In this document: positions 15,790 through 59,657 of the stretch, piece after piece | How positions within the stretch are numbered: the stretch's first letter is position 1 | How the letters are laid out: every line of letters starts with the position of its first letter | Assembly: GCF_000166355.1 (NCBI RefSeq) | Contig: NC_014652.1 | Location: 2,652,501-2,716,500, forward strand | Length of the DNA: 64,000 nt | From: Caldicellulosiruptor hydrothermalis 108 | GTDB taxonomy: Bacteria; Bacillota; Thermoanaerobacteria; Caldicellulosiruptorales; Caldicellulosiruptoraceae | Reading direction: 5' to 3' | The notes under the pieces: generated by a model | What the model saw: only the letters and a program-made list of their open reading frames with translations | The model's database searches: none | What the model was told of the DNA's origin: nothing | Position numbers and translations under genes: made by a program

Positions 15790-15884
15790 GTTTGTAGCCT
15801 CCCCGTTGGGGATTGAAACCAGAATACTCTTTTTCTGTTTTATTTACTGCATTTGTTTGTAGCCTCCCCTTTGGGGATTGAAAC
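15790..15884 (+). CRISPR. CRISPR array 1, leader-proximal part (2 repeats, 1 spacer)
   Basis: 30-nt repeats lie at 15790-15819 and 15855-15884, with a 35-nt spacer between them. The first repeat has CCCCGTTGGGG and the second CCCCTTTGGGG in the palindromic core. The array then breaks off into 7.4 kb of foreign DNA and resumes at 23293 with the same repeat variant. Confidence 0.9.
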
Positions 15885-15945
15885 ACGCAGAGCATATATT
15901 ATATGATTCAATAAAATGTTTATACTTTACAGAGGAGGGAGTCAA

Positions 15946-18882
15946 ATGAAAATTAAAACCAAAAAAGTAATTAACATTATTGTTATTTTAGCATTATTAA
16001 CAAATTTATGTATATCAAATACAGCAGTAGTTTATGCAGATACCAATTCTGCAACTGCACAGATTTCAAATGTACAGGTTACAACTACCAAGACAGCAGG
16101 TAGAACTGTAACATACAAGATTAATTCTATAAATCCAGACGAATTAAGCAAAGTAATAAATGATTTTAACAGCAAGTATGGATATTTGGATGTAGAGGAT
16201 ACTATAATTATAGAGTTTCCAGGTGATTATTTATTTAATTTGATTAATGATTGTTTGTTATATGAGTTTGATATTACAAATTATACTAGTAGTATGAGTC
16301 AGTATAGTCACGAAGTCTTAGATAAAAAGTATGGTGCTATGAAAACATCAATTAGTTCTACTAGTCTTTACTCATTTATGAGATACAAAAAAAGCAATGG
16401 TAAGTATAGATATGTTTATGTAGATCCACGTTCTCCATTTAATTTTTATATAGAAGATAAAGATTTTTATAAGTATTTTAAAGTTAAAGAAGATTCAATG
16501 TTTAGCAGTTCTGATGCAAAGCATATTTTTTATTCAAAAGATTTCTTTTCACTAAATCCAATTGGACAATATTTTTTTAATAGATTAAAAATAGCACCTA
16601 TAAGCGGGTATTCATTTATATATCAGGGTAAGATGTATATTTGTGGATTGGAGCCAGCTTATAACTTTTTCAAAGAGTTTTTAAGTAAGCCAGCAGAAAA
16701 TATAGATGATTTACCATTTGAACCTATAGAGTCTGCAGAGGGATTTAAGGTAATTATAGCAAATGCATTGTATAAAACAAGAATTTGTGATACAGAGACT
16801 TCTCTTGAACTTGGTAATATTTGGGATGGACAAATTCCATATCTAATACAGACATTAAAAGATATAAGACAGAAGGCTAAGGAAATGACTAAAGGATGTA
16901 AAGATTTAGTAGATGTGGGATTTAGGTTGGAGAGATTTTTTTATACTGAAGTTAAGTATGACTACAAGTGGTTAGAAGAAGGTGTATCAGCTGTAAAAGC
17001 TGAAAAGATAAAAAGTGATAGTGAATGGAATACTGAAAAAGGGAAAAAATATGCTTGGGCTAAAAGTTCTATTATGAAAATATGGAATTATAGATATGGT
17101 ATATGTCAAGATTATGCACGTTTAGCTGAGGTTTTAGGATTTTACATGGGTTTAAATACATTATATGCTGATAGCAATGATTTAAATCATGCATGGTATG
17201 TTCACGATATATATGGATTACACTGGTCTTCGGATACTTTAGGTACTACTACTGATCATATATTAACACCTGTAACTATATTAACTATAGGTCATCAAAT
17301 GGATAATAAACCTGTTATAAGTGAATTTTTAGAGTGGCATACAACAAGAGGGTTTATAAATTTATTAAAAACTAATAGGAGTTTTGCCGAAAAATTATTT
17401 AAAAAGCTTGTAGACAATTATAGAATACTTTCAACATATTCACCTGAAGTATTTCTTAATGATGATTATAATTATCGTATTTATGACATAAATGGTAAAT
17501 GGGCACCAAATTCTTTTACCCAAGATTTATGGAGAAGAGAAGCTTTATTTGTATTATTTCCAAAATATAAAGAGCCACCTAAGAAAGTAACTTCTATAGA
17601 ACAGGTGTTTAAAGATTTGGATAGTAGGAATATGAATGATTATGAAGTTAGAAATTATTATATATTGTTACAAGATTTATTTAAGAAAGAGCCCAAGTCT
17701 TTAGAGGAAGGCAGACAAGTTCCTATAGATATACTAAGAAAAATTTTAAATTATGTAACAGTTAAAACTGGCAAAGAATATAATTCGTTAAAGGTAAATG
17801 ATGATTTAGAATTAAGATATATTGATAAATTAGATTCATATGTTGTTCTTGATCCAAATATTCTTGTATGCAACAAAGTATATTATACTTATATTTCTTA
17901 TGTCTTCCCTTATGTAGATTTATACTTTTTAGTAAAACCTGTATATAAAAAAGAAGGTATTGCATATGGTATTTATGTAGGTAAGTTACCTAAATCAGGA
18001 GATTTAAACTCAATAGATAACAAGTTTATAGAAGATTATATTAAGAATATACCAATTTATAGAGCAAATCTTGCTGAGAGTGATTTAGCTTTTAAGACAT
18101 TTACAGTAGAAGATGAACCAGTTGTTGATAAATTCGATATAGTGGTTAGAGAGGGAGACACTTTTAAAATAAATGTATCCCAAAAGTATGGATTGCCAAA
18201 CACAAAGTTTAAGTTTATATCTGTATCAAAAGAAAGCATGGATAAGTTATTACAAGGTAAAATATCGGAAGCCAGTTCACAAGTAAGTGAGATAAAATAT
18301 TTAGGCAATTCTACGTTTAAAGCATTGGAACCAGGAATTGTAAAAATTATACCAGTATATGAAGATGAGCAGCTTTTGTTGGATTTAGGTAAGACTTTAT
18401 TAATGTTTTCACCTGATAATAAGAGTAATTATTCTAGTAGTGAGTGGCTTAATAATCACTTTGCATTTAGACAAGATTGTGGTATCATTGATATTTTAGG
18501 CAATTCTTATAGAACAACATGGGGATTTACAAACGAAGAAAAGATTGCTAATAGCACATGGTTTTATACAATACATCCATTTGATGATGAGGCTAGAAGA
18601 TTGTTCACTACTTTTCCAGCAATGTCAATTAAAGTTAAGGTATTACCATCACCTAAAGCTTATTTTAAAACAAGCAAAATAATAGCTAAAGTTGGAGCTG
18701 TAATAACATTACCGATAGCAACTACTGGCAGTGGAGCAAAATATAAGATTGTAGTGTCAAATCCTAATATAGTAGAAATTAAAAATAATAATAGTGTAAG
18801 AATAAAGTCTAAAGGTATAGTTAAACTAACTATTATAAATAGTAATGGAAGTAAGAGCGAATGTATTGTAGAGGTAAAATAG
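15946..18882 (+). CDS. Large secreted protein with transglutaminase-like core and Ig-like C-terminus
   Basis: The 978-residue protein has a signal peptide (KKVINIIVILALLTNLCISNTAVVYAD). A transglutaminase/papain-like core near residues 380-440 shows Cys387 (YGICQDYARLAEVLGFYMG), His415 (NHAWYVHDIYG) and Asp430 (LHWSSDTLG) in the order and spacing of the catalytic triad. The last 70 residues look like a bacterial Ig-like (BIG2-type) domain (IVEIKNNNSVRIKSKGIVKLTI). The rest is unrecognised. It probably acts outside the cell as a protease or cross-linking enzyme. ATG at 15946 follows GAGGAGGG. Codon use is strongly AT-biased. It is the first gene of the foreign segment in array 1, and the next gene also encodes an exported protein. 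Confidence 0.75.
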   Translation: MKIKTKKVINIIVILALLTNLCISNTAVVYADTNSATAQISNVQVTTTKTAGRTVTYKINSINPDELSKVINDFNSKYGYLDVEDTIIIEFPGDYLFNLINDCLLYEFDITNYTSSMSQYSHEVLDKKYGAMKTSISSTSLYSFMRYKKSNGKYRYVYVDPRSPFNFYIEDKDFYKYFKVKEDSMFSSSDAKHIFYSKDFFSLNPIGQYFFNRLKIAPISGYSFIYQGKMYICGLEPAYNFFKEFLSKPAENIDDLPFEPIESAEGFKVIIANALYKTRICDTETSLELGNIWDGQIPYLIQTLKDIRQKAKEMTKGCKDLVDVGFRLERFFYTEVKYDYKWLEEGVSAVKAEKIKSDSEWNTEKGKKYAWAKSSIMKIWNYRYGICQDYARLAEVLGFYMGLNTLYADSNDLNHAWYVHDIYGLHWSSDTLGTTTDHILTPVTILTIGHQMDNKPVISEFLEWHTTRGFINLLKTNRSFAEKLFKKLVDNYRILSTYSPEVFLNDDYNYRIYDINGKWAPNSFTQDLWRREALFVLFPKYKEPPKKVTSIEQVFKDLDSRNMNDYEVRNYYILLQDLFKKEPKSLEEGRQVPIDILRKILNYVTVKTGKEYNSLKVNDDLELRYIDKLDSYVVLDPNILVCNKVYYTYISYVFPYVDLYFLVKPVYKKEGIAYGIYVGKLPKSGDLNSIDNKFIEDYIKNIPIYRANLAESDLAFKTFTVEDEPVVDKFDIVVREGDTFKINVSQKYGLPNTKFKFISVSKESMDKLLQGKISEASSQVSEIKYLGNSTFKALEPGIVKIIPVYEDEQLLLDLGKTLLMFSPDNKSNYSSSEWLNNHFAFRQDCGIIDILGNSYRTTWGFTNEEKIANSTWFYTIHPFDDEARRLFTTFPAMSIKVKVLPSPKAYFKTSKIIAKVGAVITLPIATTGSGAKYKIVVSNPNIVEIKNNNSVRIKSKGIVKLTIINSNGSKSECIVEVK

Positions 18883-19056
18883 TATTTGAATTACTAATAT
18901 ATTTTCAATATCAAGTTGGCTGCATAAAGGAGGCGAGTTTACCTCATACCTCTTTACATTTTTGAAAATTGAACTTCTGCGAGTATTGATACATTTTAAA
19001 TTGGTACTTCAATTAAAGCAATATATCAAATCAATCAATACAGGAGGTGCATTGAA

Positions 19057-21420
19057 ATGATAAAAATTAAATTGAATAAGAAGTCAATTATAGCATTGAC
19101 AGTTGTGGTTGTATTTATTTTAGTATCAGTATTGGGTGCTATATTTTATAATGAAAACACAAAACAAGATACTATGCAGAATATTAATAGTCAGCCTTCT
19201 ACAGATACTGGTGTTAAAAACGAAAAGTCAAATACAAACATTGATAAGTTATTTAACTGGATGAATGTATTTAAAGTTTATGCAGATGCTACAGAAGATA
19301 CAAATGATATTTTAAGCGAAGAAAACATTAAAGCAGTTCCTGTATGGCAGCCAGGAGAAATTAATCCAGTTATATATCAAAAAAATGGAAAATTGTATAG
19401 GCTTAATGATATTCCAATAGAAACATTAGTAAAGTATTGCAGGTTGTTGCATGATATTGAAGTAGTAGATATACTTCGTAAATATAATAATTCTAAGGCA
19501 AGATTTACTGATCGTGTAGATGGTTCAGAATGGTTTCCAACAAAGTGGGGGCTTCTTTATAGAAGAATAGGACAGCCGTTTTATAGTAAAGCAATTTGTT
19601 ATTCTGATGGGTATACTCGTCCTGTAACTTTTATGGAAAAAATGGTAACTTCCTGGTATAGTGATCATTATAATTGGTTCACATTAGTTCCACCAATAAA
19701 AATTAAATATGATACAATAGATGTATCATATGATCCAAATTGTCAATATATAAGCAATCGAAAAAGAGAACTTGCACGCAACTTCATACTAGTACCAAAA
19801 CCTTATATAGATAGATATTTGGCTAATTATCCAACATATTTGCCTTATCAAGATATAAAGGAAGGAATTCCACTTGGTGGAACAAATAAGTTTATATCAG
19901 AAGAAGAAGTTTTGGCTCTTCCACGTGCATTCATGGATGCATCTGAGGAGCTTTTTCCTATCTATTTTAACAGAGACAGAGTAAAATTTGATATAACTAG
20001 GGCTTATACTTATCTTTCTATAAGATTCCTTAAAGATTTTGATACAGAGGCTTATAATAGATTAGCTTCGGTAATCAAAAAGTATAAAATGTCTTTAGGT
20101 AAAGATGCATTTGTATCAGTAAGAATGCAAAACGAACCAGTTATTGTTAATGGAGCAGCATCTAGACAGTATTTTTTGATAAGTTTAAAATTTATGTATA
20201 TAAAACCTACTCTTGATATAAAGCCAAAATTTGCTGCAGTTCCAAATAAAAAAGGAGTTCTGTATTTAATACAACTAGATCCATATACAATTTCATTTGA
20301 AAAATTATACTGTATATCAGAGTTATATTCCAAGCAAGATTTAAGACCATTATTAACAGAGTTAGGTAAAATATACAAAGCAATAGCAAGTGGTAAGATA
20401 GATGGAAATGGATATTTCACATTTTTAAAGAATGTTAAGTTAACAAGTGGGCAGTCTAATTCATTTTTTAAGAACATGGGTAAGCTAGGAGACGAATATT
20501 TGAAGTTAGGTAAATCAAAGAACCCTTTATATGTAGCAGCATCAAGGACTACAACATTCAGAGCAGCTTGTCTGAATTATAATAGAAAGTATATTGTAGA
20601 TATATTCTATGATATATTAAACACCATGGGTTATTTGGATGATTTTAAGCAAGCATGGAATTTAGGAGCAAAATATGCTAGTGCAGTTTATAATACACCA
20701 GATCCAAAAACATTTGATCCGATAAATTTGGTAGATTACCATATATCACAAGATTACTATCCAACTTTCATTTTTGGTAAGGTAGATTTAAATGTAGCTG
20801 GGTTTAATAAATATAAAATAAGAGATTATAAGAATTTCGGCAAAGGCTGGTATAGTTTAGTAAACTATTATGTAATGAATCAGGCAATTAGTAAGAATAT
20901 AGTCAATAAAGATATATTTAGCAAGTATTATAATAACAATTATTTTGTAATGCCAATTAGCACTGATGCATGGGCAACAAAGGATTTTAAGAATTTAACT
21001 CCAGGAGCAACACCACATTTGCATAGTATAATGATTATTACTGGTAGATATCCTGATTTAGATAATAATGGCAAGCCATATGTATACAGATCAACATGGA
21101 ATGGTGTTGTAGGTCCAACACTTCCAATAATCTTTAGGTTATTTCCAGAGTTTGTAAATAAAGATAAGACAAGATACCCATACTTTGCAGTAGAATCTAT
21201 GTTATTTGATGGAATATCATTTTATGATAAGCCAGTTATACCATGGTCAGATATGAATATGTCTAAATCATATAAGGATTTAATACAAAGATCATGGACT
21301 ACAAACTTGGCAATAAAATCAGATGTAAAAGAAGGAAATGATTTTAACCTGTTAACTACAAATGAATATTCTATTCTGCATCGTTGCATATATAATAATG
21401 AATATCAAGTTGTTGAATAA
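19057..21420 (+). pseudogene. Large exported protein of unknown function, 3' end split off by an IS
   Basis: The 787-residue frame starts at an ATG after AGGAGGTG and has one N-terminal membrane segment (IIALTVVVVFILVSVLGAIFY), then an acidic linker (VYADATEDTNDILSEEN) and a long Tyr/Lys/Asn-rich body. Its true 3' end has been displaced. The codons AAT GAA TAT at 21397-21405 are repeated at 22521-22529, and the frame resumes there as KKYIEDAKKNAITQDIIMKN to a TAA at 22634. The final QVVE is encoded by the IS end. The segment PVIYQKNGKLYRLNDIP resembles PVVYVGDELYRIKKDD in the gene at 22719, suggesting related proteins. No family is recognised; it may still be stable because only the last 35 residues are replaced. 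Confidence 0.75.
21397..21405 (+). repeat. Left copy of the 9-bp IS target-site duplication
   Basis: AATGAATAT, repeated at 22521-22529. It reads in frame as Asn-Glu-Tyr on both sides, which confirms the insertion borders. Confidence 0.8.
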
Positions 21421-21451
21421 ATAATTATACCATTAATGTTATTATATAGAA

Positions 21452-22399
21452 CTATAAATTATTCCACGTGTATTTAAAAGAAAATTTACAGTTTTCAATT
21501 TTTTGAATATAGACCTCTATCAAATAAGTAATCATTATCCAGTCCACATGCCTCTTATATGTTCTAAAACCTCTTAACCTTATTTGTTCTAAATTGTATT
21601 CTCCTTTTAACTTCCCAAATAATCTTTCAATTTTTGTCCTTTGCTTATATAACCTTTGTCCTTCCTCACTTCTTAAAAATTCCATATTTTTTACCCTCAA
21701 AATATTTTTTACATTACTAAAATCCTTACTATTTCTCTTATTTACCGCCGCTACAAACTTTATCTCAAGTCTATCTGCCACCTCAAACCACTTCGCACAA
21801 TCATAACCTGCATCCGCTAATATTACTTCAGGTCCAAATATCTTAGCTTCATACAAAAGTTCTACTACTTTACTGTCATGGATATTTGCACGTGTCAACC
21901 ACCATACTATAGGTATAACCTCATCTTCAACTGTTGCCAACACATGTAATTTATACCCATTGTAAAAACCTAAACTAACACATACTCCTACTTCTGCCTC
22001 TTTGTCACCCCTCGAGCTTCTCAAAGGTGTGGAATCTATAGCACAAACTTTTGTCTGCGGAACTATTTCTCTCACTAAAATTCTTGCTATCCCTTCTATA
22101 TACCCTTCTTCAATTACCTTTGCCCATTTCGAAAAATATGAATGATCAGGGCTCTTCTCTATCCCTATAGCCTTTTTAAATTCTTCATCTTCATTTATCT
22201 TGTATTCTAATTCCCTGAAGCTGTTTATCTTGTTTTTGACTTTGTAAACAAAACAAGCTATTATATGGCTTAGCTTAAATTTCTTCGGTCTTCCTCTCCT
22301 GCTGCTCTTTATCTTTAATCCCAGGGCTTTTATTACTTTCTCAATTGTCATAAGTATCTTTAAAAATTTTTGTTTTTGTGTTTTAATAAAATTAGACAT
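21452..22399 (-). CDS. IS transposase, DDE (IS4/IS5-like) family
   Basis: The 315-residue transposase shows the three catalytic residues of the RNase H-like DDE core: Asp in VCAIDSTPLRSS, Asp in VILADAGYDCAKW and Glu in QRTKIERLFGKLK. An N-terminal helix-turn-helix region (RGRPKKFKLSHIIACFVYKVKNKINSFRELE) precedes it. The Y-(2)-R-(3)-E-(6)-K-like pattern around the Glu fits the IS4/IS5 superfamily. The second ATG at 22399 is chosen because AAGGAGG lies 6 bases upstream. That ribosome site is one arm of a perfect 12-bp inverted repeat and would be masked in read-through transcripts. The gene appears complete. Confidence 0.9.
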   Translation of the reverse strand: MSNFIKTQKQKFLKILMTIEKVIKALGLKIKSSRRGRPKKFKLSHIIACFVYKVKNKINSFRELEYKINEDEEFKKAIGIEKSPDHSYFSKWAKVIEEGYIEGIARILVREIVPQTKVCAIDSTPLRSSRGDKEAEVGVCVSLGFYNGYKLHVLATVEDEVIPIVWWLTRANIHDSKVVELLYEAKIFGPEVILADAGYDCAKWFEVADRLEIKFVAAVNKRNSKDFSNVKNILRVKNMEFLRSEEGQRLYKQRTKIERLFGKLKGEYNLEQIRLRGFRTYKRHVDWIMITYLIEVYIQKIENCKFSFKYTWNNL

Positions 22400-22400
22400 T

Positions 22401-22465
22401 GCCATCCTCCTTTGTTAGGTGTTTTTAGTCTTCTCTTATCGTAATTTTACCTCAAGGAGGATGGC
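22401..22465 (-). promoter_or_regulatory. Inverted repeat that can sequester the transposase ribosome binding site
   Basis: GCCATCCTCCTT (22401-22412) and AAGGAGGATGGC (22454-22465) are perfect 12-bp complements 41 bases apart. On the transposase mRNA the 3' arm contains its Shine-Dalgarno sequence. Transcripts started outside the IS would carry both arms and fold; an internal start would leave out the 5' arm. This mirrors known IS safeguards against read-through expression. Confidence 0.7.
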
Positions 22466-22520
22466 TTTTTATATATCTATTTATTGTCTTTTCTGTTAAT
22501 CCCTTTTATTCAACAAGCTA

Positions 22521-22634
22521 AATGAATATAAAAAATATATTGAAGATGCTAAGAAAAATGCAATTACACAAGACATCATCATGAAAAATGCAGGATATAT
22601 CAAGTCACTATTAGGCAACATTTTTGAGAAGTAA
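22521..22634 (+). pseudogene. Displaced 3' end of the exported-protein gene
   Basis: The frame starts with the second copy of the target duplication (AAT GAA TAT) and continues KKYIEDAKKNAITQDIIMKN, then AGYIKSLLGNIFEK, to a TAA at 22632-22634. It joins in frame to codon 783 of the gene at 19057 if the IS is removed. Confidence 0.8.
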
Positions 22635-22718
22635 CTAATAATACAGTTTGCATACAGGGTTACTAGACTATAATAGTAACCCTGTATGCTTATACTAAAT
22701 CAGGAGGTGGTATATTTT

Positions 22719-23300
22719 ATGAAGTATTTTGCAAAGTTCAGGTTAAGAGAAAAGATTAGAGTGAAAAAGTCGTTTATCAGGTTAATTTTTACGTTAGTTA
22801 TCATGATTATTAGTTTCATTGCATCATTTATAGCTAAAGCAGATAGTTCAGATCCAGTTAGTTTTATATATGATCCTGTTGTTTATGTAGGTGATGAATT
22901 ATATAGGATAAAGAAAGATGACTTATATAATTTAAGTATTAGAGGACTTTTTGATTTGTTAAGCCAGAAAAATTATATAAGTGATTTAATGACACCATCA
23001 GTATTAAATAAATCAGATGAAAGTAGTAATGATCTTTATAATTTAATAGCAGAAAAACTTTCAGTTAAGGTATTTCCTTTTTTAAATATTTTAGAACCCA
23101 GTGGCAACTTTTTAATACAATCTGAGTTAAACACAAGGAACTTAAGCATGGGTTTAAGCATAACCGAAAAAGCAGATAATACAGCTATAGCAAAATTAGG
23201 TAATTTATTAAGCAAGGCTTTAGCAGCTGGTTCTCCACTGCTTGAGCAAGTAGTTAGCACAATAAAACTTCCATATGGAATAGTACCAGAGGGTTTGTAG
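22719..23300 (+). pseudogene. Exported protein cut off at a CRISPR repeat
   Basis: The 193 codons start at an ATG preceded by AGGAGGTGG. A basic N-terminus and one membrane segment (LIFTLVIMIISFIASFIAKA) point to export. PVVYVGDELYRIKKDDLYNL resembles PVIYQKNGKLYRLNDIP in the gene at 19057, so the two are probably paralogues, and a full copy would be much longer. The last three codons and the stop (GGT TTG TAG) come from the CRISPR repeat that begins at 23293, so the coding sequence is truncated by the junction. It is the last gene of the foreign segment. Confidence 0.75.
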
Positions 23301-23389
23301 CCTCCCCTTTGGGGATTGAAACGTGCTTAGCAGTTTGCTGCGATTTGTGCCATCTTTGAGTTTGTAGCCTCCCCTTTGGGGATTGAAAC
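23293..23389 (+). CRISPR. CRISPR array 1, middle part (2 repeats, 1 spacer)
   Basis: Repeats lie at 23293-23322 and 23360-23389, identical to the second repeat of the leader-proximal part, with a 37-nt spacer. Foreign DNA abuts on both outer sides. Confidence 0.9.
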
Positions 23390-23739
23390 AAGACTGCAAG
23401 ACTATAGAAGATTTCGGGAGAGTAGCTTTTAAACTACGTTTTATTGATAAGAAAGCAGCTTGGAATGATATATACGAAAAGACTAAAGATTTTGACGTGA
23501 TAGGTTATGTGAAGGAACATTATATTGATTATGTTGAGCAGAACAAAAACGAAATAATAGGGGCTATTATGGAAAACACTGTTGAACCTGAAAAAAGAGA
23601 CGAGATGAGAGAAACAATGCGTGGATGGTTGGACGAGGCAATACGAATGGTTAAGAATGGCGAGGAGTTGTATTGGATGCCTGAACGAATCTTCTATGAT
23701 AGCGTGGCAGTAGCAATGAAAAAGATAGGGGTGAAATGA
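23390..23739 (+). pseudogene. 3' part of a phage- or plasmid-like gene starting at a CRISPR repeat
   Basis: The frame runs out of the repeat (the repeat's TTGAAAC gives Met-Lys and the first base of the next codon) and continues QDCKTIEDFGRVAFKLRFID for about 115 codons to a TGA overlapping the next start. There is no ribosome binding site at the repeat, so the 5' end was lost when the DNA was joined here. The protein part is charged and helical with a Glu/Arg-rich middle; no family is recognised. Overlapping genes of this size are usual in phages. Confidence 0.6.
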
Positions 23740-23933
23740 TGTATGTGATAGCTGTATTGATTAGAGATAAAAGAAACGAAGAAAAGATATACGAAATGAT
23801 AGAAGACGCATTTTCAAGTGATGTGGTAAATGATGAAATACTGAAAAAACGAGAAAAAGTTTTGGAAGAAATTAAAAGCATAGGGGAAATTGAAGTGTAT
23901 AACTACATTCAAAAATATGGAGTTAGTATGTAG
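23739..23933 (+). CDS. Small hypothetical protein of the foreign segment
   Basis: The 64-residue product (MYVIAVLIRDKRNEEKIYEM, then helical Glu/Lys-rich sequence) begins at the ATG of ATGATG, with AGGGGTG 5 bases upstream, and overlaps the preceding stop. It ends 30 bases before a terminator-like hairpin. It is complete but not recognised. It lies inside the 651-bp foreign piece between CRISPR repeats, so it probably came from a phage or plasmid. Confidence 0.5.
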   Translation: MYVIAVLIRDKRNEEKIYEMIEDAFSSDVVNDEILKKREKVLEEIKSIGEIEVYNYIQKYGVSM

Positions 23934-23940
23934 AAGTTAG

Positions 23941-23973
23941 CCACCCAACCCAACAGGGTTGAGGTGGTATTTT
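23941..23973 (+). terminator. Terminator-like hairpin inside the 651-bp foreign piece
   Basis: CCACCCAACCC pairs with GGGTTGAGGTGG with a small bulge around AACA, followed by TATTTTTAT. Confidence 0.6.
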
Positions 23974-24001
23974 TATGCCTTCTTGTAAGGGGGTGAGTGT
24001 C

Positions 24002-24040
24002 ATGGCTGAGAAGGTTAGCAACAGAGCATGGGGCGAAATC
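24002..24040 (+). pseudogene. First 13 codons of a gene cut off by a CRISPR repeat
   Basis: AGGGGGTGA and five bases precede an ATG that reads MAEKVSNRAWGEI and then runs straight into the repeat at 24041, ending at its TGA. It is a genuine gene start with an optimal ribosome site. Its body is missing. Confidence 0.6.
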
Positions 24041-24249
24041 GTTTGTAGCCTTCCCGTTGGGGATTGAAACCTCTCCTTCAGTTCGCTTATATCCACCTTC
24101 TCTACTAGTTTGTAGCCTCACCGTTGGAGATTGAAGGTGGTGGGAGGTTTTGTAGACTCCACGTTTGGGATTGTAAGAAGGTGAATTTTAACCTCTATGT
24201 CGGAAATTGAGAGGAAAAAGTGGGTAGCCTTTTCTTTGTGGATTGAAAA
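24041..24249 (+). CRISPR. CRISPR array 1, distal end with degenerate repeats
   Basis: A good repeat (24041-24070, CCTTCCCGTTGGGG variant) and a 37-nt spacer lead to a damaged repeat at 24108. Three more degenerate copies follow at about 24147, 24186 and 24220, spaced only 34-39 bases apart, so hardly any spacer is left between them. Confidence 0.75.
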
Positions 24250-24255
24250 AAGAAA

Positions 24256-24993
24256 GTGATAGTCACTTCTTGGAATCTGAAATATATTCTGATTGAGAAC
24301 CAGTCAACTGTAAAAAAAGAGATGCAGCAAAAGATTTTAAAGTACATGATAAGATTATGGGCAGAGGAGATAAGAAAAGGAGTACAAATCCTGCCAGCAA
24401 TTATACCGATAGTTGTATACAATGGAATAGGTGAGAGATGGAGTATATCAACCGACCTTATGGAAGCATTTGACATATTTAAGGATGATGTCTTCAGGTA
24501 CAAAGTAGTTGACATAATAGAGCTTGAGGTAAAAGAGTTTTTGGAAAGAGAAAAGGATATACTACTACCTATAGTGTTTTATCTTGAGCAGGTAAGAGAA
24601 GACAGGAGTGAGCTGATAAGAAGGCTTTTAGAGGTTGAGAAGAACTTAAAGAAGCTGAGTAAAAAGAATGTAGATAGATTTTTGGAATGGTCGTATCGGA
24701 TTATCAGACCGAGGTTTTCTGAAGAACAAAAGTCAGAGTACGATAGAGTTGCAAAAAGGGTTAAACAGGAGGGAGTGAATGCCATGGGTGAGTTTGTATC
24801 AAATGTTGCAAGACTTTTAGATGAAGCAAAGACAAAGGATTTTTTGGCAGGGAAACTTGAAGGAAAGCTTGAAGCCACAATAGAGTTTGCAAAAAGATTA
24901 ATAAAAAAGGGATTTAGTGATGAAGAGATTGCAGAGCTTACAAAGCTTCAGATTGAAAAAGTCAAAGAATTGAGAAATTCCATGGTAAATTGA
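24256..24993 (+). pseudogene. Rpn/YhgA-like PD-(D/E)XK gene lacking its 5' end
   Basis: From about 24283 the product matches the intact homologue at 35075-36028 (YILIENQSTVKKEMQQKILKYM against YILIENQSTVKRDMAQKILKYM) and continues in register through RVKQEGVNAMGEFVSNVARLLDEAK to the C-terminal DEEIAELT helix. The first 85 or so residues, including the ADIV catalytic aspartate, are absent; only GTG and nine odd codons precede the match. The family is a nuclease-fold group found in many copies in genomes. The fragment starts just after the degenerate end of array 1, so the deletion joined array and gene. Confidence 0.8.
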
Positions 24994-33604: not shown

Positions 33605-34948
33605 GTTTGTAGCCTTCCCTTTGGGGATTGAAACAAAAACTTTGTGGAAAACTAAGTATTTACAAAAGTGGTTTGTAGCCTTCCCTTTGGGGATTGAAAC
33701 CACATCGAAAATGCGGGTAATATTTTTATACTACCGTTTGTAGCCTTCCCTTTGGGGATTGAAACAGAATCGAAGTCATGAAACTTGCAGCTTTGTTTCC
33801 TAGTTTGTAGCCTTCCCTTTGGGGATTGAAACCACTTGCTACAGCACTTGTTATGTCACTGCCTGCATGGTTTGTAGCCTTCCCTTTGGGGATTGAAACA
33901 TGCATATCCCTCTCCGAGCACCCAATTATTAGTTTGTAGCCTTCCCTTTGGGGATTGAAACACGTTGCAAAGCGGTATAGGGGACATGGGCTTGAATGTT
34001 TGTAGCCTTCCCTTTGGGGATTGAAACAAATTATAAATGCTATGGGCCAAATTAAGGTAAGGTTTGTAGCCTTCCCTTTGGGGATTGAAACATGTTAACT
34101 CAATGTATCCTTTTGTTATGAGAAATAGTTTGTAGCCTTCCCTTTGGGGATTGAAACTCATTACCATCTCTTAAAGTAAAAAGCAAACTTAGTTTGTAGC
34201 CTTCCCTTTGGGGATTGAAACTCATTACCATCTCTTAAAGTAAAAAGCAAACTTAGTTTGTAGCCTTCCCTTTGGGGATTGAAACTATAATCTTAGTTTT
34301 ATCTTCTAATGTTTGTGCTTGGTTTGTAGCCTTCCCTTTGGGGATTGAAACTAATATCTGATTTGGAGACTATTACCTTCTCTTTGGGTTTGTAGCCTTC
34401 CCTTTGGGGATTGAAACTTACACCATTATCGTTAATTACTAACTCATAAGTTTGTTTGTAGCCTTCCCTTTGGGGATTGAAACCTATTTTACTCGGTATT
34501 AATTTTCACCATTTTACTCGTTTGTAGCCTTCCCTTTGGGGATTGAAACTCTAGACGAAAATATTGAAGCTATTGTAGAATATGAGTTTGTAGCCTTCCC
34601 TTTGGGGATTGAAACTTACGCAATGAGAGTTCAAACCATCAAGACTATGACTGTTTGTAGCCTTCCCTTTGGGGATTGAAATACCCTTCGTCAAAATTAT
34701 TGATTTTTTTCAATTCAGTTTGTAGCCTTCCCTTTGGGGATTGAAACGGGTAGGGGCCCCAAACGAGCCCTTTGGGCGAGCTTGGCTTGTAGCCTTCCCT
34801 TTGGGGATTGAAACATCAATATGTTTAGTTGTCGTTAGAAAAGGCGGTGGTTTGTAGCCTTCCCTTTGGGGATTGAAACTTGATATCAACAAGTGCTTGA
34901 ATTCTGTGGAAACCATTGGTTTGTAGCCTACCCTTTGAAGATTAAAAA
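33605..34948 (+). CRISPR. CRISPR array 2 (21 repeats, 20 spacers)
   Basis: Thirty-base repeats start at 33605, 33671, 33736, 33803, 33870, 33932, 33998, 34062, 34128, 34192, 34256, 34322, 34388, 34454, 34520, 34586, 34653, 34718, 34785, 34850 and 34919. This array uses the variant CCTTCCCTTTGGGG. Spacers are 32-37 nt. Spacers 9 and 10 (34158-34191 and 34222-34255) are identical. The repeats at 34653 and 34785 have single changes, and the last (34919) is degenerate, as expected at the oldest end. Confidence 0.97.
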
Positions 34949-35074: not shown

Positions 35075-36028
35075 TTGAGCTCTGAAATTCCACCAATGGA
35101 GCATGATACCACTTTTAAGTTCTTGCTCAAAGACAAAAAAGAGCTACTTGTGCTTGTAAAAGACATTCTCAGATACAGCTGGGCAGATGAAATAGATGAG
35201 GAGTCTATAGAATTTGATGACAGCGAATTTGTAACACAGCAGCTATCCCAGCTCAGAGCCGATATTGTTGCAAAAGCAAAGCTAAAAGGAAGAGAAGTAT
35301 ATTTTTATATCCTGATAGAGAACCAGTCGACAGTGAAAAGGGATATGGCACAGAAGATACTGAAGTACATGGTAAGCCTGTGGTGGAAGGAACTTAGCAA
35401 AGGGGCAGAGAACCTTCCGCCTGTTATACCCATAGTTGTGTACAACGGAACAAAGGAAAAATGGAATCTTTCTACTGATTTAATGGAAGCATTTGAGACT
35501 TTCAAGGATGATGTATTCAGATACAGAGTAGTAGATGTGTCTGAAGTAGATGTCAAAAAGATTCTTCAAGAGGAGAAGGACTTGCTAACGCCGATAATAT
35601 TTTATTTAGAGCAGGTAAGAGAAGACAGGGATGAGCTTATAAGAAGGCTTTTAGAGGTTGAGAAGAATGTAGAGAAACTGAGCAATGAGAACGTAGACAG
35701 ATTTTTAAGGTGGGCATATTACATAATACGACCGAGGCTGCTGGAAGAGCAAAAAGAGGAGTATGAAAGGGTAGCAGAAAGAGTTAAACAAGGGGGTGGC
35801 AAAAATATGGGTGAATTTATATCAAATGTAGCAAGACTTCTTGATGAAGCAAGAGCAAAAGATTTCAACCTTGGACTGCAACAAGGTTTGCAACAAGGTA
35901 TTCGTGAAAGTCAAATTAGAATAGCTAAGAAGATGATACAAAAGGGTATAAGAGATGAAGAGATAGCAGAGCTGACCGAACTTGATATTGAGGAGATAAA
36001 GAGATTGAGAAAAGAGCTTTTGAATTGA
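35075..36028 (+). CDS. Rpn/YhgA-like PD-(D/E)XK nuclease family protein
   Basis: The 317-residue protein starts HDTTFKFLLKDKKELLVLVKDIL, then FVTQQLSQLRADIVAKAKLKGREVYFYILIENQSTVKRDMAQKILKYM, which carries the Asp and the Glu-x-Gln of the nuclease core of the transposase_31/Rpn group. A C-terminal helical tail has Gln-rich repeats (GLQQGLQQG) and DEEIAELTELDIEEI. Rpn proteins are linked to recombination-promoting DNA cutting. It begins at a TTG after GGAGTG, with a TATAAT box near 34975. It is the intact relative of the fragment at 24256, and like it sits at the distal end of a CRISPR array. Confidence 0.85.
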   Translation: MSSEIPPMEHDTTFKFLLKDKKELLVLVKDILRYSWADEIDEESIEFDDSEFVTQQLSQLRADIVAKAKLKGREVYFYILIENQSTVKRDMAQKILKYMVSLWWKELSKGAENLPPVIPIVVYNGTKEKWNLSTDLMEAFETFKDDVFRYRVVDVSEVDVKKILQEEKDLLTPIIFYLEQVREDRDELIRRLLEVEKNVEKLSNENVDRFLRWAYYIIRPRLLEEQKEEYERVAERVKQGGGKNMGEFISNVARLLDEARAKDFNLGLQQGLQQGIRESQIRIAKKMIQKGIRDEEIAELTELDIEEIKRLRKELLN

Positions 36029-52216: not shown

Positions 52217-52492
52217 ACACAGTTTTAGTTAGATTTCTATTGTGTTTTTGATTTTTCTGAAGTTCACGCCATCTTATGCTAAATTTAATTCTTCTTTGTA
52301 GCTTGGATTAATTATTCTTCAGCTATATTCTCTTTTTTATCCTTATCCAAATCTATCGGATGCATGTGTTTCAAATTAAAAAAGGAGCGAAATGAAATAT
52401 TATTTACATCTACTCCTGTATATTGTATTTTTGTTTATACATTTTATTCCATATATTTGCATGTACTTTGAAATATAAGGCATAATTTAGCT

Positions 52493-52673
52493 TTTGTATT
52501 TACCAATTGTTGTCGACCTGCAATCCCCCCAAAAACCCCCGGGGGTCGACAGCAAAAGGAAGTTTTTGGCATCCCTTGACTTTCAAAAGCTTTAGGGGTA
52601 TAATAGAAATAACCTACAGCAGTTTGAAAACTTAACCATTTGTTCCTTGTGATATTTTTCAAGCCATCTACGG
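52493..52673 (+). promoter_or_regulatory. CRISPR leader of array 3
   Basis: Same plan as the leaders at 15608 and 33423: GTCGACC/GGTCGAC inverted repeat, TTGACT and a TATAAT box 17 bases apart, and the conserved CTTAACCATTTGTTCCTTGTG end. Confidence 0.9.
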
Positions 52674-53032
52674 GTTTGTAGCCTCCCCTTTGGGGATTGA
52701 AACAAAACTAAGATTTGGGCTTGAAGGAGGAAGAGTTCAGTTTGTAGCCTCCCCTTTGGGGATTGAAACTAGCGTCAATAAACAGAAATTGGTTGTTAGG
52801 GTCTTGTTTGTAGCCTCCCCTTTGGGGATTGAAACAACATTAATGAAGGTAATATAGAAATAGCTTTTGAGTTTGTAGCCTCCCCTTTGGGGATTGAAAC
52901 AAAATACTATAGCAGAGCTCAGGCGATTGAAAGCTAGTTTGTAGCCTCCCCTTTGGGGATTGAAACACTTTTCACTTGCTCTTTCATATAATCTAATACA
53001 GTGTTTGTAGCCTCCCCTTTGGGGATTGAAAC
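52674..53032 (+). CRISPR. CRISPR array 3 (6 repeats, 5 spacers)
   Basis: Identical 30-nt repeats start at 52674, 52740, 52806, 52871, 52937 and 53003 (variant CCTCCCCTTTGGGG, as in array 1), with spacers of 35-36 nt. There is no degenerate last repeat; the sixth is perfect and abuts a truncated gene. Confidence 0.97.
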
Positions 53033-53439
53033 ATATGCTAAAACGTGCCAGACTTGTTTTCAGAGCGCTGATGGCTGCAAAGAGATACTTTAGAATAATC
53101 CCTGCTAAAAGAGGTCTGTGCCTGGTCTACAGATTCTCCATTTTATCCACTGTCTCAAATCCTGAACTTCCCGTAGATATAAACCAGCCAACAGAAATAA
53201 TTGAATATGAAGGTGTGAAGTGGTCCGTTGAAGAATTTGTTTCGCTTGTTGTCATCGGTGAAGTTGATGTGAACAGAATAAAATCAGTAGTCGAAAAATT
53301 TGAAAACAATTGGAAGAGGAAATACCCGAAATTAAGAGATAGAGAAATTCAAAAGTATATAAACAAAATAAAGGATGAAGATTTGGAAGAAATGAGGAAG
53401 ATTTGGGATGCTTTTGTAAATGCTGTAAATGGACAATAA
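53033..53439 (+). pseudogene. 5'-truncated copy of the gene at 59112, joined to array 3
   Basis: Starting at AAAACG, three to four bases after the last repeat, the sequence matches the gene at 59112-59657 to its end (KRARLVFRALMAAKRYFRIIPAKRGLCLVYRFSILSTVSNPELPVDINQPTEIIEY against the same with few changes). The first 55 or so residues, including MPIEDDYTTLFELIKSI, are missing. A frame can be read from the TTG inside the repeat, but there is no ribosome site. The family is unknown. Confidence 0.8.
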
Positions 53440-56754: not shown

Positions 56755-56933
56755 TTTTGCATTTACCAATTGCTGTCGACCTGTAATCCCCCCAAAAACC
56801 CCGGGGGTCGAGAGCAAAAGGCAATTTATGGCATGTGTTGACTTCCAAGAGCTTGTGGGGTATAATAGAAATAATCTATAGTAGCTTGAAAACTTAACCA
56901 TTTGTTCCTTGTGGCATTTTTCAAGACTTCTAC
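56755..56933 (+). promoter_or_regulatory. CRISPR leader of array 4
   Basis: Fourth copy of the leader: inverted repeat with one changed base (GTCGACC/GGTCGAG), TTGACT and TATAAT 17 bases apart, and CTTAACCATTTGTTCCTTGTG before the repeat. Confidence 0.88.
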
Positions 56934-56963
56934 GGTTGTAGCCTTCCCGTTGGGGATTGAAAC
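56934..56963 (+). CRISPR. CRISPR array 4, first repeat
   Basis: One repeat (variant CCTTCCCGTTGGGG, with a T-to-G change at position 2) follows the leader. It is followed by 495 bp of phage-like DNA instead of a normal spacer; the next repeat is at 57459. Confidence 0.85.
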
Positions 56964-57052
56964 ATTATTACGAAGATTTAGACACTTTAGAGCAAGAACT
57001 TGATACAAATATACTTGACAATTTTGAACTTGATGAGGAGGCACCATTTTGA
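56964..57052 (+). pseudogene. 3' end of a phage-like gene starting at a CRISPR repeat
   Basis: The frame runs out of the repeat as HYYEDLDTLEQELDTNILDN, then FELDEEAPF, to a TGA that overlaps the next ATG. It is acidic and 29 codons long. Its beginning is missing. Confidence 0.6.
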
Positions 57053-57288
57053 TGGTATATGAAGTTACTTATAACAATTCAAGACTTGTGTTTGAAGGAA
57101 AAGAAATTAACTATTTCAAGATTTTAGAGGCTTTAGATAAGCTTAGAGATTTGCGTGACTATATTGAACTGTTTTACACTGAGTATTCTGGTCTTCCTCT
57201 TACCTCCCTTCCATATGATGTTTTACTTGATATTTTTACAAACTATCTTGACTTTATAGGTGTACAAATAAAGGTTATAGGTAGGTAA
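57052..57288 (+). CDS. Small phage-like hypothetical protein
   Basis: The 78-residue protein (MVYEVTYNNSRLVFEGKEIN, then YFKILEALDKLRDLRDYIEL, ending in IGVQIKVIGR) starts at an ATG overlapping the previous stop (TGATG) with GAGGAGG upstream. It is complete. It is not recognised; position just before a recA-like gene suggests a phage replication or recombination accessory protein. Confidence 0.55.
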   Translation: MVYEVTYNNSRLVFEGKEINYFKILEALDKLRDLRDYIELFYTEYSGLPLTSLPYDVLLDIFTNYLDFIGVQIKVIGR

Positions 57289-57296
57289 ACTTTTTT

Positions 57297-57458
57297 ATGG
57301 GTGACAAGGCAAAAATAATTGAACTCATGAAAGCTATTAATAAAGCTAAAGGTGGAAATGTGATAGGTTTTTTGGTGAGATAGCACCAAAATATATTCCG
57401 GTAATTCCAACTCAATCACTAATTCTGAACAAACAGCTAGGTATTGGTGGATTTCCAT
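57297..57458 (+). pseudogene. 5' fragment of a phage recA-like gene, frameshifted and cut by a CRISPR repeat
   Basis: From ATG at 57297 the product reads MGDKAKIIELMKAINKAKGG, NVIGF, then after a one-base shift in a run of six T (near 57366-57371) FGEIAPKYIPVIPTQSLILN, KQLGIGGFP, where the repeat begins. This matches the N-terminal region of RecA, whose consensus has V-x-V-I-P-T-G-S-L-x-L-D-x-A-L-G-x-G-G-x-P just before the Walker A loop. The ATPase core itself is missing. Confidence 0.7.
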
Positions 57459-57583
57459 GTTTGTAGCCTCCCCGTTGGGGATTGAGGAGGGGAAGGGTCC
57501 CCCTCTTTGGGGATTGAGAGGGAGAGGGAACCTTACCTTTGGTGTTTGAGGTGTGGGAAAGGTTTCCTTTGGGGTTTGAGAGG
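57459..57583 (+). CRISPR. CRISPR array 4, distal repeat and spacerless degenerate repeats
   Basis: A nearly complete repeat starts at 57459. G-rich degenerate copies follow at about 57494, 57524 and 57555 with a period of only 30-35 bases, so practically no spacers are left. Confidence 0.65.
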
Positions 57584-59028: not shown

Positions 59029-59111
59029 TCTTTCCAAAGAGAATAAAACTCAGTTAAAATAACCTTCGCTGCTGCTTGCAGCAAAAAAAAAATTAAAGGG
59101 AGATGGTAAGC

Positions 59112-59657
59112 ATGCAGCGAAAATCACTTCTTGAAAAGCTCTCATCAATAAGATTTCGCCAATACGTTTTGCAAGAAGAAGGTTTAAACTCCTGGTGGGA
59201 TTTTAGAATGCCAATTGAAGATGATTACACTACACTGTTTGAGCTGATCAAATCAATAAAACGCGCAAGGCTTGTGTTCAAAGCTTTGATGGCATGCAAA
59301 AGATACTTTAGAATAATTCCTTCAAAAAAAGGTCTGTGCCTTGTCTACAGATTCTCCATTCTCTCAACAGCAAAAAATCCAGAACTTCCAGTTGACATAA
59401 ATCAGCCAACAGAAATAATAGAATACAACGGCATAAAATGGTTTGTCGAAGAATTCGGTTCTCTTATTGTCATCGGTGAGGTTGACGTAAACAAGGTTAA
59501 AAGAATTGTCGAAAAACTTGAAGAAAACTGGAAGAAAAGATATCCAAAGATAAGAGAGAGGGAAATTAAAAAGTATATTGACAGCATAAAGAATGAAAAC
59601 ATAGAAGAAATGCAAAAAATGTGGGATTCATTTGTGGATGTTGTAAATGGAGACTAA
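59112..59657 (+). CDS. Conserved protein of unknown function, intact relative of the fragment at 53033
   Basis: The 181-residue protein starts MQRKSLLEKLSSIRFRQYVL, then MPIEDDYTTLFELIKSIKRARLVFKALMACKRYFRIIPSKKGLCLVYRFSILST, then PVDINQPTEIIEYNGIKWFVEEFGSLIVIGEVDVNKVKRIVEKLEENWKKRYPKIREREI. It has a basic, aromatic middle and a charged helical end, with no membrane segment, which would suit nucleic-acid contact. ATG at 59112 has GGGAGATGG 5 bases upstream; the ATG at 59103 has no spacing. The shared cas-operon motif precedes it, and a truncated copy is fused to array 3. No known family recognised. Confidence 0.65.
   Translation: MQRKSLLEKLSSIRFRQYVLQEEGLNSWWDFRMPIEDDYTTLFELIKSIKRARLVFKALMACKRYFRIIPSKKGLCLVYRFSILSTAKNPELPVDINQPTEIIEYNGIKWFVEEFGSLIVIGEVDVNKVKRIVEKLEENWKKRYPKIREREIKKYIDSIKNENIEEMQKMWDSFVDVVNGD

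What the first reader, a model, noticed from the sequence alone, without database searches (positions are those of the whole stretch)
56964..57458. 495-bp phage-like slice with a recA-like gene start inside array 4
The only interval of the leader-adjacent array 4 is not a spacer but 495 bp carrying a gene tail, a whole 78-codon gene and the start of a recA-like gene (VIPTQSLILNKQLGIGGFP) cut by the repeat. It lies directly next to the leader, the position of the newest acquisition. This is the clearest case for capture of a long invader fragment by a CRISPR array.
Basis: partly seen in the sequence, partly recalled or inferred. Interest (0 to 1): 0.85.

Follow-up and report, generated by a model that had tools for sequence, protein, structure and literature searches.

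The report
Inherited oversized phage slice in CRISPR
A 495-base piece of what is most likely phage DNA sits between two CRISPR repeats where a 36-base spacer should be; related genomes show it is an old, inherited relic at the far end of the array, and one of a small recurring class in this genus, not the newest capture.

Summary
The 495-bp interval is real: it lies exactly between a leader-adjacent repeat and a degenerate terminal repeat, and holds a gene tail, an intact 78-codon ORF and a frameshifted recA/uvsX-like gene start cut by the repeat. It is not the newest acquisition. A congener (G007) has the same interval (98%) as the last interval of a 13-interval array, beyond 12 ordinary spacers; a third species has an array at the same site without it. 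The window's array is therefore either a collapsed copy or one that never grew. A survey of 12 species (about 1,050 ordinary spacers of 34-39 nt) found three more repeat-bounded oversized intervals (399, 650, 264 bp) and one open-ended piece, all near array ends. The 399-bp one is a contiguous slice of known IMG/VR siphophages, 80-85% identical in the five best; the 495's own donor was not found. Both left ends that can be tested abut a TTA, fitting the T[T/C]N PAM derived here. Orthologous arrays of G000 and G002 share one right end but have different left ends. I favour recombination of phage DNA with two pre-existing spacers over capture of one long prespacer, but only narrowly. Probably an inert relic; the recurrence is the interesting part.

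The parts
56755..56934 (+). CRISPR leader of this array, homologous to the leaders of the window arrays at 15790, 33605 and 52674
   Evidence: 86-92% repeats with 52492-52673; alignment of leaders
56935..56963 (+). leader-adjacent repeat, 29 nt, one T deleted (GTTGTAGCCTTCCCGTTGGGGATTGAAAC)
56964..57458 (+). oversized interval, 495 bp, phage-like, conserved at 98% in G007 between repeats
56964..57052 (+). tail of a gene cut on its 5' side by the repeat (YYEDLDTLEQELDTNILDNFELDEEAPF*)
   Evidence: read directly
57052..57288 (+). intact 78-codon ORF; protein identical in G007 (two synonymous changes); no relative found
57297..57458 (+). start of a RecA/UvsX-like recombinase gene, frameshifted in the T-run at 57368-57373 and cut on its 3' side by the repeat
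57459..57485 (+). terminal repeat with degenerate 3' end (GATTGAGG instead of GATTGAAAC)
57486..57582 (+). degenerate repeat remnants beyond the last repeat (old array trailer), part of which is shared with G007 and G004
23390..24040 (+). second oversized phage-like interval in the window (about 650 bp) between repeats; orthologous to the 399-bp interval of G002, with the same right 100 bp and a different left part

Best explanation
Shown: an old, inherited, oversized interval at the leader-distal end of a long-resident CRISPR array. It looks adjacent to the leader here because the array either lost its younger spacers or never added any after the split from G007. Shown for the 399-bp sister interval, inferred for the 495: the DNA is one uninterrupted phage slice. 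Inferred mechanism: both ends of such an interval began as ordinary spacers (S1 on the leader side, S2 on the far side) from the same phage and in the same orientation. DNA of an infecting or resident phage paired with S1 and S2, and everything between them in the array (repeat, or repeats and spacers) was replaced by the stretch of phage DNA lying between the two protospacers. Such a slice yields no normal crRNA and could truncate or burden transcription of spacers beyond it, so it survives only at the array's old end, where little lies downstream and deletion is rare. The confidence below is for the whole including the mechanism; the descriptive part alone I put at about 0.9.
For: Same interval, 98%, last of 13 intervals in G007; an array at the same site without it in G004. 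Three more repeat-bounded intervals, 399, 650 and 264 bp, among about 1,047 ordinary spacers of mostly 34-39 nt. The 399-bp slice is contiguous with phage contigs L089-L094. PAM from 23 spacer-protospacer matches is T[T/C]N in 16 of 23, against about 0.10 background. Donor sequence left of the 399-bp slice is TTA, and the G001 piece begins after TTA in its G000 homologue: 2 of 2, p about 0.01. A T[T/C]N also lies one spacer length from the right end: TCA at 38 nt (399 and 650), TTG at 36 nt (264), TTA at 36 nt (495 in G007). Orthologous arrays of G000 and G002 (flanks 92-93%) share the right 100 bp (96%) and right junction but have unrelated left parts, expected if S2 is fixed and S1 differs. 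Terminal units resist deletion and arrays can collapse onto the leader repeat (PMC8047081). Longer prespacer mimics integrate poorly at the repeat-spacer junction in one studied Cas1-Cas2 (PMC8390005).
Against: All three independent intervals lie in the phage sense orientation, whereas 19 of 23 matched ordinary spacers are antisense (Fisher p about 0.013), so S1 and S2 would have to come from the minority class unless conversion of useful antisense spacers is selected against. No array still carrying separate S1 or S2 spacers was found. The right-end PAM signal is weak (p 0.03-0.06 with the G007 version of the 495, 0.16-0.23 with the window's own version, TAA). The T[T/C]N PAM was derived from spacers of the same genomes and then applied to few intervals. 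The donor of the 495 itself was not found, so neither of its ends can be tested directly.
Confidence: 0.45

Rival explanations
1. One rare oversized acquisition: Cas4-Cas1-Cas2 joined the two ends of a single 495-bp phage fragment to a leader-adjacent repeat, perhaps one complex at each end, and the array grew in front of it before being lost again in this lineage.
For: Exact repeat junctions on both sides in all repeat-bounded cases; TTA at both testable left ends; no need for two precursor spacers; sense orientation of 3 of 3 is unremarkable (1/8) without selection; cas1 and cas4 of type I-B are in the window.
Against: Longer prespacer mimics were inhibited at the repeat-spacer side in a studied Cas1-Cas2 (PMC8390005); does not predict the shared right end with different left ends in G000 and G002 nor a PAM one spacer length from the right end; the intervals are last in arrays of 13, 27 and 3 intervals, about 1 in 1,000 if capture were uniform, so selection must be added.
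Confidence: 0.33
2. Resident prophage remnant: leader and repeats were placed into, or recombined with, phage DNA already in the chromosome, and the slice is what remained between two array pieces.
For: In G001 a phage piece directly follows the last repeat, runs beyond the right end used in G000 and G002, and ends near an IS30-like transposase gene; arrays in this genus often abut truncated genes.
Against: No phage sequence outside the repeats of the 495 in G000 or G007; the downstream flank is collinear host DNA that also borders an array in G004; both genes are cut exactly at repeat borders; PAM-like left ends.
Confidence: 0.1
3. Newest acquisition.
For: Adjacent to the leader in this one genome.
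Against: Leader-distal in G007 behind 12 spacers, 98% identical, with the frameshift shared.
Confidence: 0.02
4. Retained cargo: the array keeps the 78-codon ORF because its protein is useful, for example as a defence or counter-defence factor driven by the leader.
For: Protein identical in G000 and G007: 2 changes in 237 nt, both synonymous, against 9 in 258 nt elsewhere in the interval (Fisher p 0.065); start codon overlapping the previous stop with GAGGAGG upstream.
Against: No relatives anywhere; the difference is not significant; the other intervals carry different genes.
Confidence: 0.05

Closest known systems
Ordinary CRISPR spacers of this genus (type I-B and III arrays)
   Same: foreign DNA between two repeats; leader, repeat, PAM-like left end, inherited in arrays
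   Different: 264-650 bp instead of 34-39 nt; carries whole small genes; sense rather than antisense orientation; near the leader-distal end only
Conserved trailer-end (anchor) spacers and array collapse (review PMC8047081)
   Same: oldest unit retained at the degenerate terminal repeat; the leader repeat can end up next to it
   Different: the retained unit is a phage slice more than ten times longer than a spacer
Ectopic (non-leader) spacer acquisition, e.g. S. thermophilus CRISPR3 (PMC7999890, abstract only)
   Same: repeat-flanked foreign sequence away from the leader
   Different: ectopic acquisitions are reported there as spacers, not slices of several hundred bp
Erroneously long spacers from degenerate repeats (CRISPRDetect, PMC4869251)
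   Same: appear as oversized intervals near the 3' end of arrays
   Different: the 495 and 399 intervals contain no internal degenerate repeat; the 399 is uninterrupted phage sequence
Prophages of this genus and IMG/VR siphophages (L089-L102; G009 prophage about 905-934 kb)
   Same: source of the 399-bp slice and of the right part of the 650-bp slice; targeted by the genus's spacers
   Different: intact phage genomes, not array parts; none contains the 495 sequence

Membership tests
CRISPR spacer | bounded on both sides by direct repeats of the array | tested here: met
CRISPR spacer | uniform spacer length (here mostly 34-39 nt, mode 36) | tested here: not met
   495 bp against 1,047 ordinary spacers
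CRISPR spacer | derived from a mobile element | tested here: inconclusive
   UvsX/RecA-like gene start but no donor in phages, IMG/VR, GTDB contigs or plasmids; met for the sister 399-bp interval
CRISPR spacer | protospacer flanked by the system's PAM on the leader side | tested here: inconclusive
   not testable for the 495 (no donor); TTA for the 399 and for the G001 piece; PAM T[T/C]N
CRISPR spacer | processed into a crRNA that guides interference | not testable with these tools
   needs RNA data
Newest (leader-end) acquisition | absent from sister lineages or leader-proximal in them | tested here: not met
   present and leader-distal in G007
Prophage remnant | phage sequence continues beyond the interval into the flanks | tested here: not met
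   flanks are leader and degenerate repeats followed by host genes
CRISPR type I-B adaptation module nearby | cas1 and cas4 of type I-B in the same locus | tested here: met
   NCBIfam TIGR03641 and TIGR00372

The most novel reading that the evidence does not exclude
CRISPR spacers can act as homology arms through which phage DNA recombines into the array, so that arrays gradually pick up slices of phage genomes carrying intact genes. This would be a route of gene flow from phage to host, and an erosion pathway of immune memory, distinct from Cas1-Cas2 acquisition.
Probability: 0.35. Interest if true: 0.8.

Novelty: new variant of a known kind. Interest (0 to 1): 0.55.

Why it matters
Spacer length is held to be set by the Cas1-Cas2 ruler. 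A recurrent class of intervals up to about 20 times longer, one of them a proven uninterrupted phage slice with a PAM-like left end, means that either the ruler fails occasionally or arrays exchange DNA with phages by recombination. Either way phage genes can enter the chromosome inside an array. Such intervals may be missed by array finders: CRISPRDetect, for example, extends arrays over gaps of at most 125 nt by default (PMC4869251), so they may be under-counted. Orthologous pairs such as G000 and G002 make the two mechanisms directly separable by sequencing more strains.

Tried and rejected
Donor search for the 495: GenBank phages by DNA and protein, IMG/VR by the 78-aa ORF and by the recA start, GTDB contigs, 398 genomes of the phylum (two weak hits, judged chance because they lie in unrelated contexts), plasmids. 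A weak tblastn hit of the 78-aa ORF in L145 lies antisense inside another ORF and was dropped. RecA-like hits in G005 and G008 (E 0.03) are membrane-type proteins, chance. Campbell-type integration of a whole phage at one spacer: the two ends would repeat the same spacer, and they do not. A phage-borne repeat as entry point: 18 matches at up to 7 mismatches in the viral loci, none resembling a true copy. Precursor spacers S1 or S2 in any surveyed array: none. Protein donors for the left part of the 650-bp interval: none in IMG/VR; the 264-bp interval has no match in the phage collection. No structure prediction was run for the 78-aa orphan: no homologues for an alignment.

Full report
Observation. 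The 495-bp interval 56964-57458 exists as described, between a 29-nt leader-adjacent repeat and a terminal repeat with a degenerate 3' end. The same repeat occurs in seven clusters in the window, all on the + strand; four of them have a homologous leader. The interval carries a gene tail ending at 57052, a 78-codon ORF overlapping it (57052-57288), and a RecA/UvsX-like gene start at 57297. That gene is frameshifted in a T-run, and the frameshift is shared with a second species. The RecA assignment rests on alignment to the host RecA at the right place, PHROG 97 and Pfam RecA below its cut-off.

Age. The interval is unique in its own genome. Of 41 genomes searched it is found elsewhere only in G007, at 98%, again exactly between repeats, but there it is the last of 13 intervals behind 12 ordinary spacers, next to the degenerate terminal repeat; the downstream flank is collinear at 95%. 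It is therefore older than the split of these species and leader-distal by origin. In the window genome the younger spacers are absent, either lost by collapse onto the leader repeat (a process reviewed in PMC8047081) or never added. G004 has a leader-bearing array followed by the same downstream DNA, ending in ordinary spacers and degenerate repeats without the slice, so the site was already a CRISPR array rather than a prophage into which a leader was inserted.

Not alone. I fetched the CRISPR regions of all 12 species held for the genus and parsed 70 arrays of three or more repeats and 1,047 ordinary spacers, mostly 34-39 nt with mode 36. Three more repeat-bounded oversized intervals of phage-like coding sequence emerged: 399 bp in G002, about 650 bp in the window itself (23390-24040) and 264 bp in G005. 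In G001 a phage piece follows the last repeat with no repeat on its right. Apart from the 650, which is followed by one ordinary spacer, the repeat-bounded ones are the last regular interval of their array. Other long gaps between repeats hold host genes and were not counted.

Donor. The 399-bp interval is a contiguous slice of siphophage contigs in IMG/VR, 80-85% identical in DNA for the five best, from the tail of a head-morphogenesis-type gene through a small ORF to the start of the next gene (gene names from my own reading of the sequences). A related prophage is present in G009. Spacers of this genus match these phages, so the phages are its natural targets. No donor was found for the 495 or the 264; the phage origin of those two is an inference.

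PAM and orientation. Twenty-three spacer-protospacer matches give a 5' motif T[T/C]N in 16 cases, against about 0.10 expected. Donor sequence immediately left of the 399-bp slice is TTA in the donor phages aligned. The left end of the G001 piece falls directly after TTA in its G000 homologue (read by hand). Nineteen of the 23 spacers are antisense to the phage genes, as expected if RNA-targeting type III systems (Csm1/Cas10) shape retention; the oversized intervals are all sense (Fisher p 0.013).

Mechanism. Two readings remain. In the first, two ordinary spacers from one phage served as homology arms and phage DNA replaced what lay between them. It predicts PAM-like left ends (seen in 2 of 2), a PAM one spacer length inside the right end (TCA at 38 nt, TTG at 36 nt, and TTA at 36 nt in G007 but TAA in the window; p 0.03-0.23) and, when the far spacer is fixed, the same right end with different left ends. 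That last pattern is what the orthologous arrays of G000 and G002 show: 96% identity over the right 100 bp and the same repeat junction, unrelated left parts. In the second reading, Cas1-Cas2 joined one long fragment. This needs no precursors and fits the sense orientation better, but it runs against the ruler behaviour seen in one studied Cas1-Cas2 (PMC8390005) and does not explain the shared right end. No precursor spacers were found. I commit to recombination at 0.45 against 0.33 for long acquisition.

Function. No evidence of function. The 78-aa protein is unchanged between the two species while the rest of the interval has nine changes, but the difference is not significant (p 0.065). The gene fragments are cut, the leader repeat carries a deletion, and the simplest reading is an inert relic.

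Limits. The event count is small (three independent intervals); the PAM was learned from the same genomes; phage origin of the 495 itself is inferred; no transcript data exist; the literature search covered open-access papers only and found no report of this class, which is weak evidence of novelty.

Noticed in passing
window 23390-24040: Second oversized phage-like interval (about 650 bp) between repeats: a gene tail, a 65-codon ORF, and the start of a phage gene (MAEKVSNRAWGEI) cut by the repeat; orthologous to a 399-bp interval in G002 with a different left part.
   Followed up: yes
window 15885-23291: 7.4 kb with two large secreted-protein genes, a transposase and a 204-codon ORF whose end is overrun by a repeat lies between a leader-bearing two-repeat array and leaderless repeats; the whole of 15790-24250 may be one interrupted array.
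   Followed up: no
window 53003-53439 and 59103-59657: The last repeat of the six-repeat array is fused to a gene lacking its N-terminus; a full-length paralogue lies at 59103-59657.
   Followed up: partly
window 24256-24993 and 35075-36028, and many loci of the genus: Rpn/YhgA-like genes (named from memory) sit directly downstream of many arrays, sometimes truncated at a degenerate repeat.
   Followed up: no
window 57486-57582; L026 12428-12533; L029 1092-1199: Array ends carry runs of degenerate repeats ending in GATTGAGG separated by only 7-10 nt.
   Followed up: no
window 34191-34320: Two neighbouring spacers of the 20-repeat array are identical (TCATTACCATCTCTTAAAGTAAAAAGCAAACTT), a tandem duplication.
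   Followed up: no
genus-wide: Ordinary spacers of the genus are antisense to phage genes in 19 of 23 matches, with a T[T/C]N motif 5' of the protospacer.
   Followed up: partly
L176-L178 (G009:C1 about 905-934 kb): Apparently intact prophage of the siphophage group targeted by the genus's arrays; one G005 spacer matches it 39 of 39.
   Followed up: partly
L062 reverse complement, 458 onward (G005): The last repeat after the 264-bp interval abuts a gene on the opposite strand that appears truncated.
   Followed up: no
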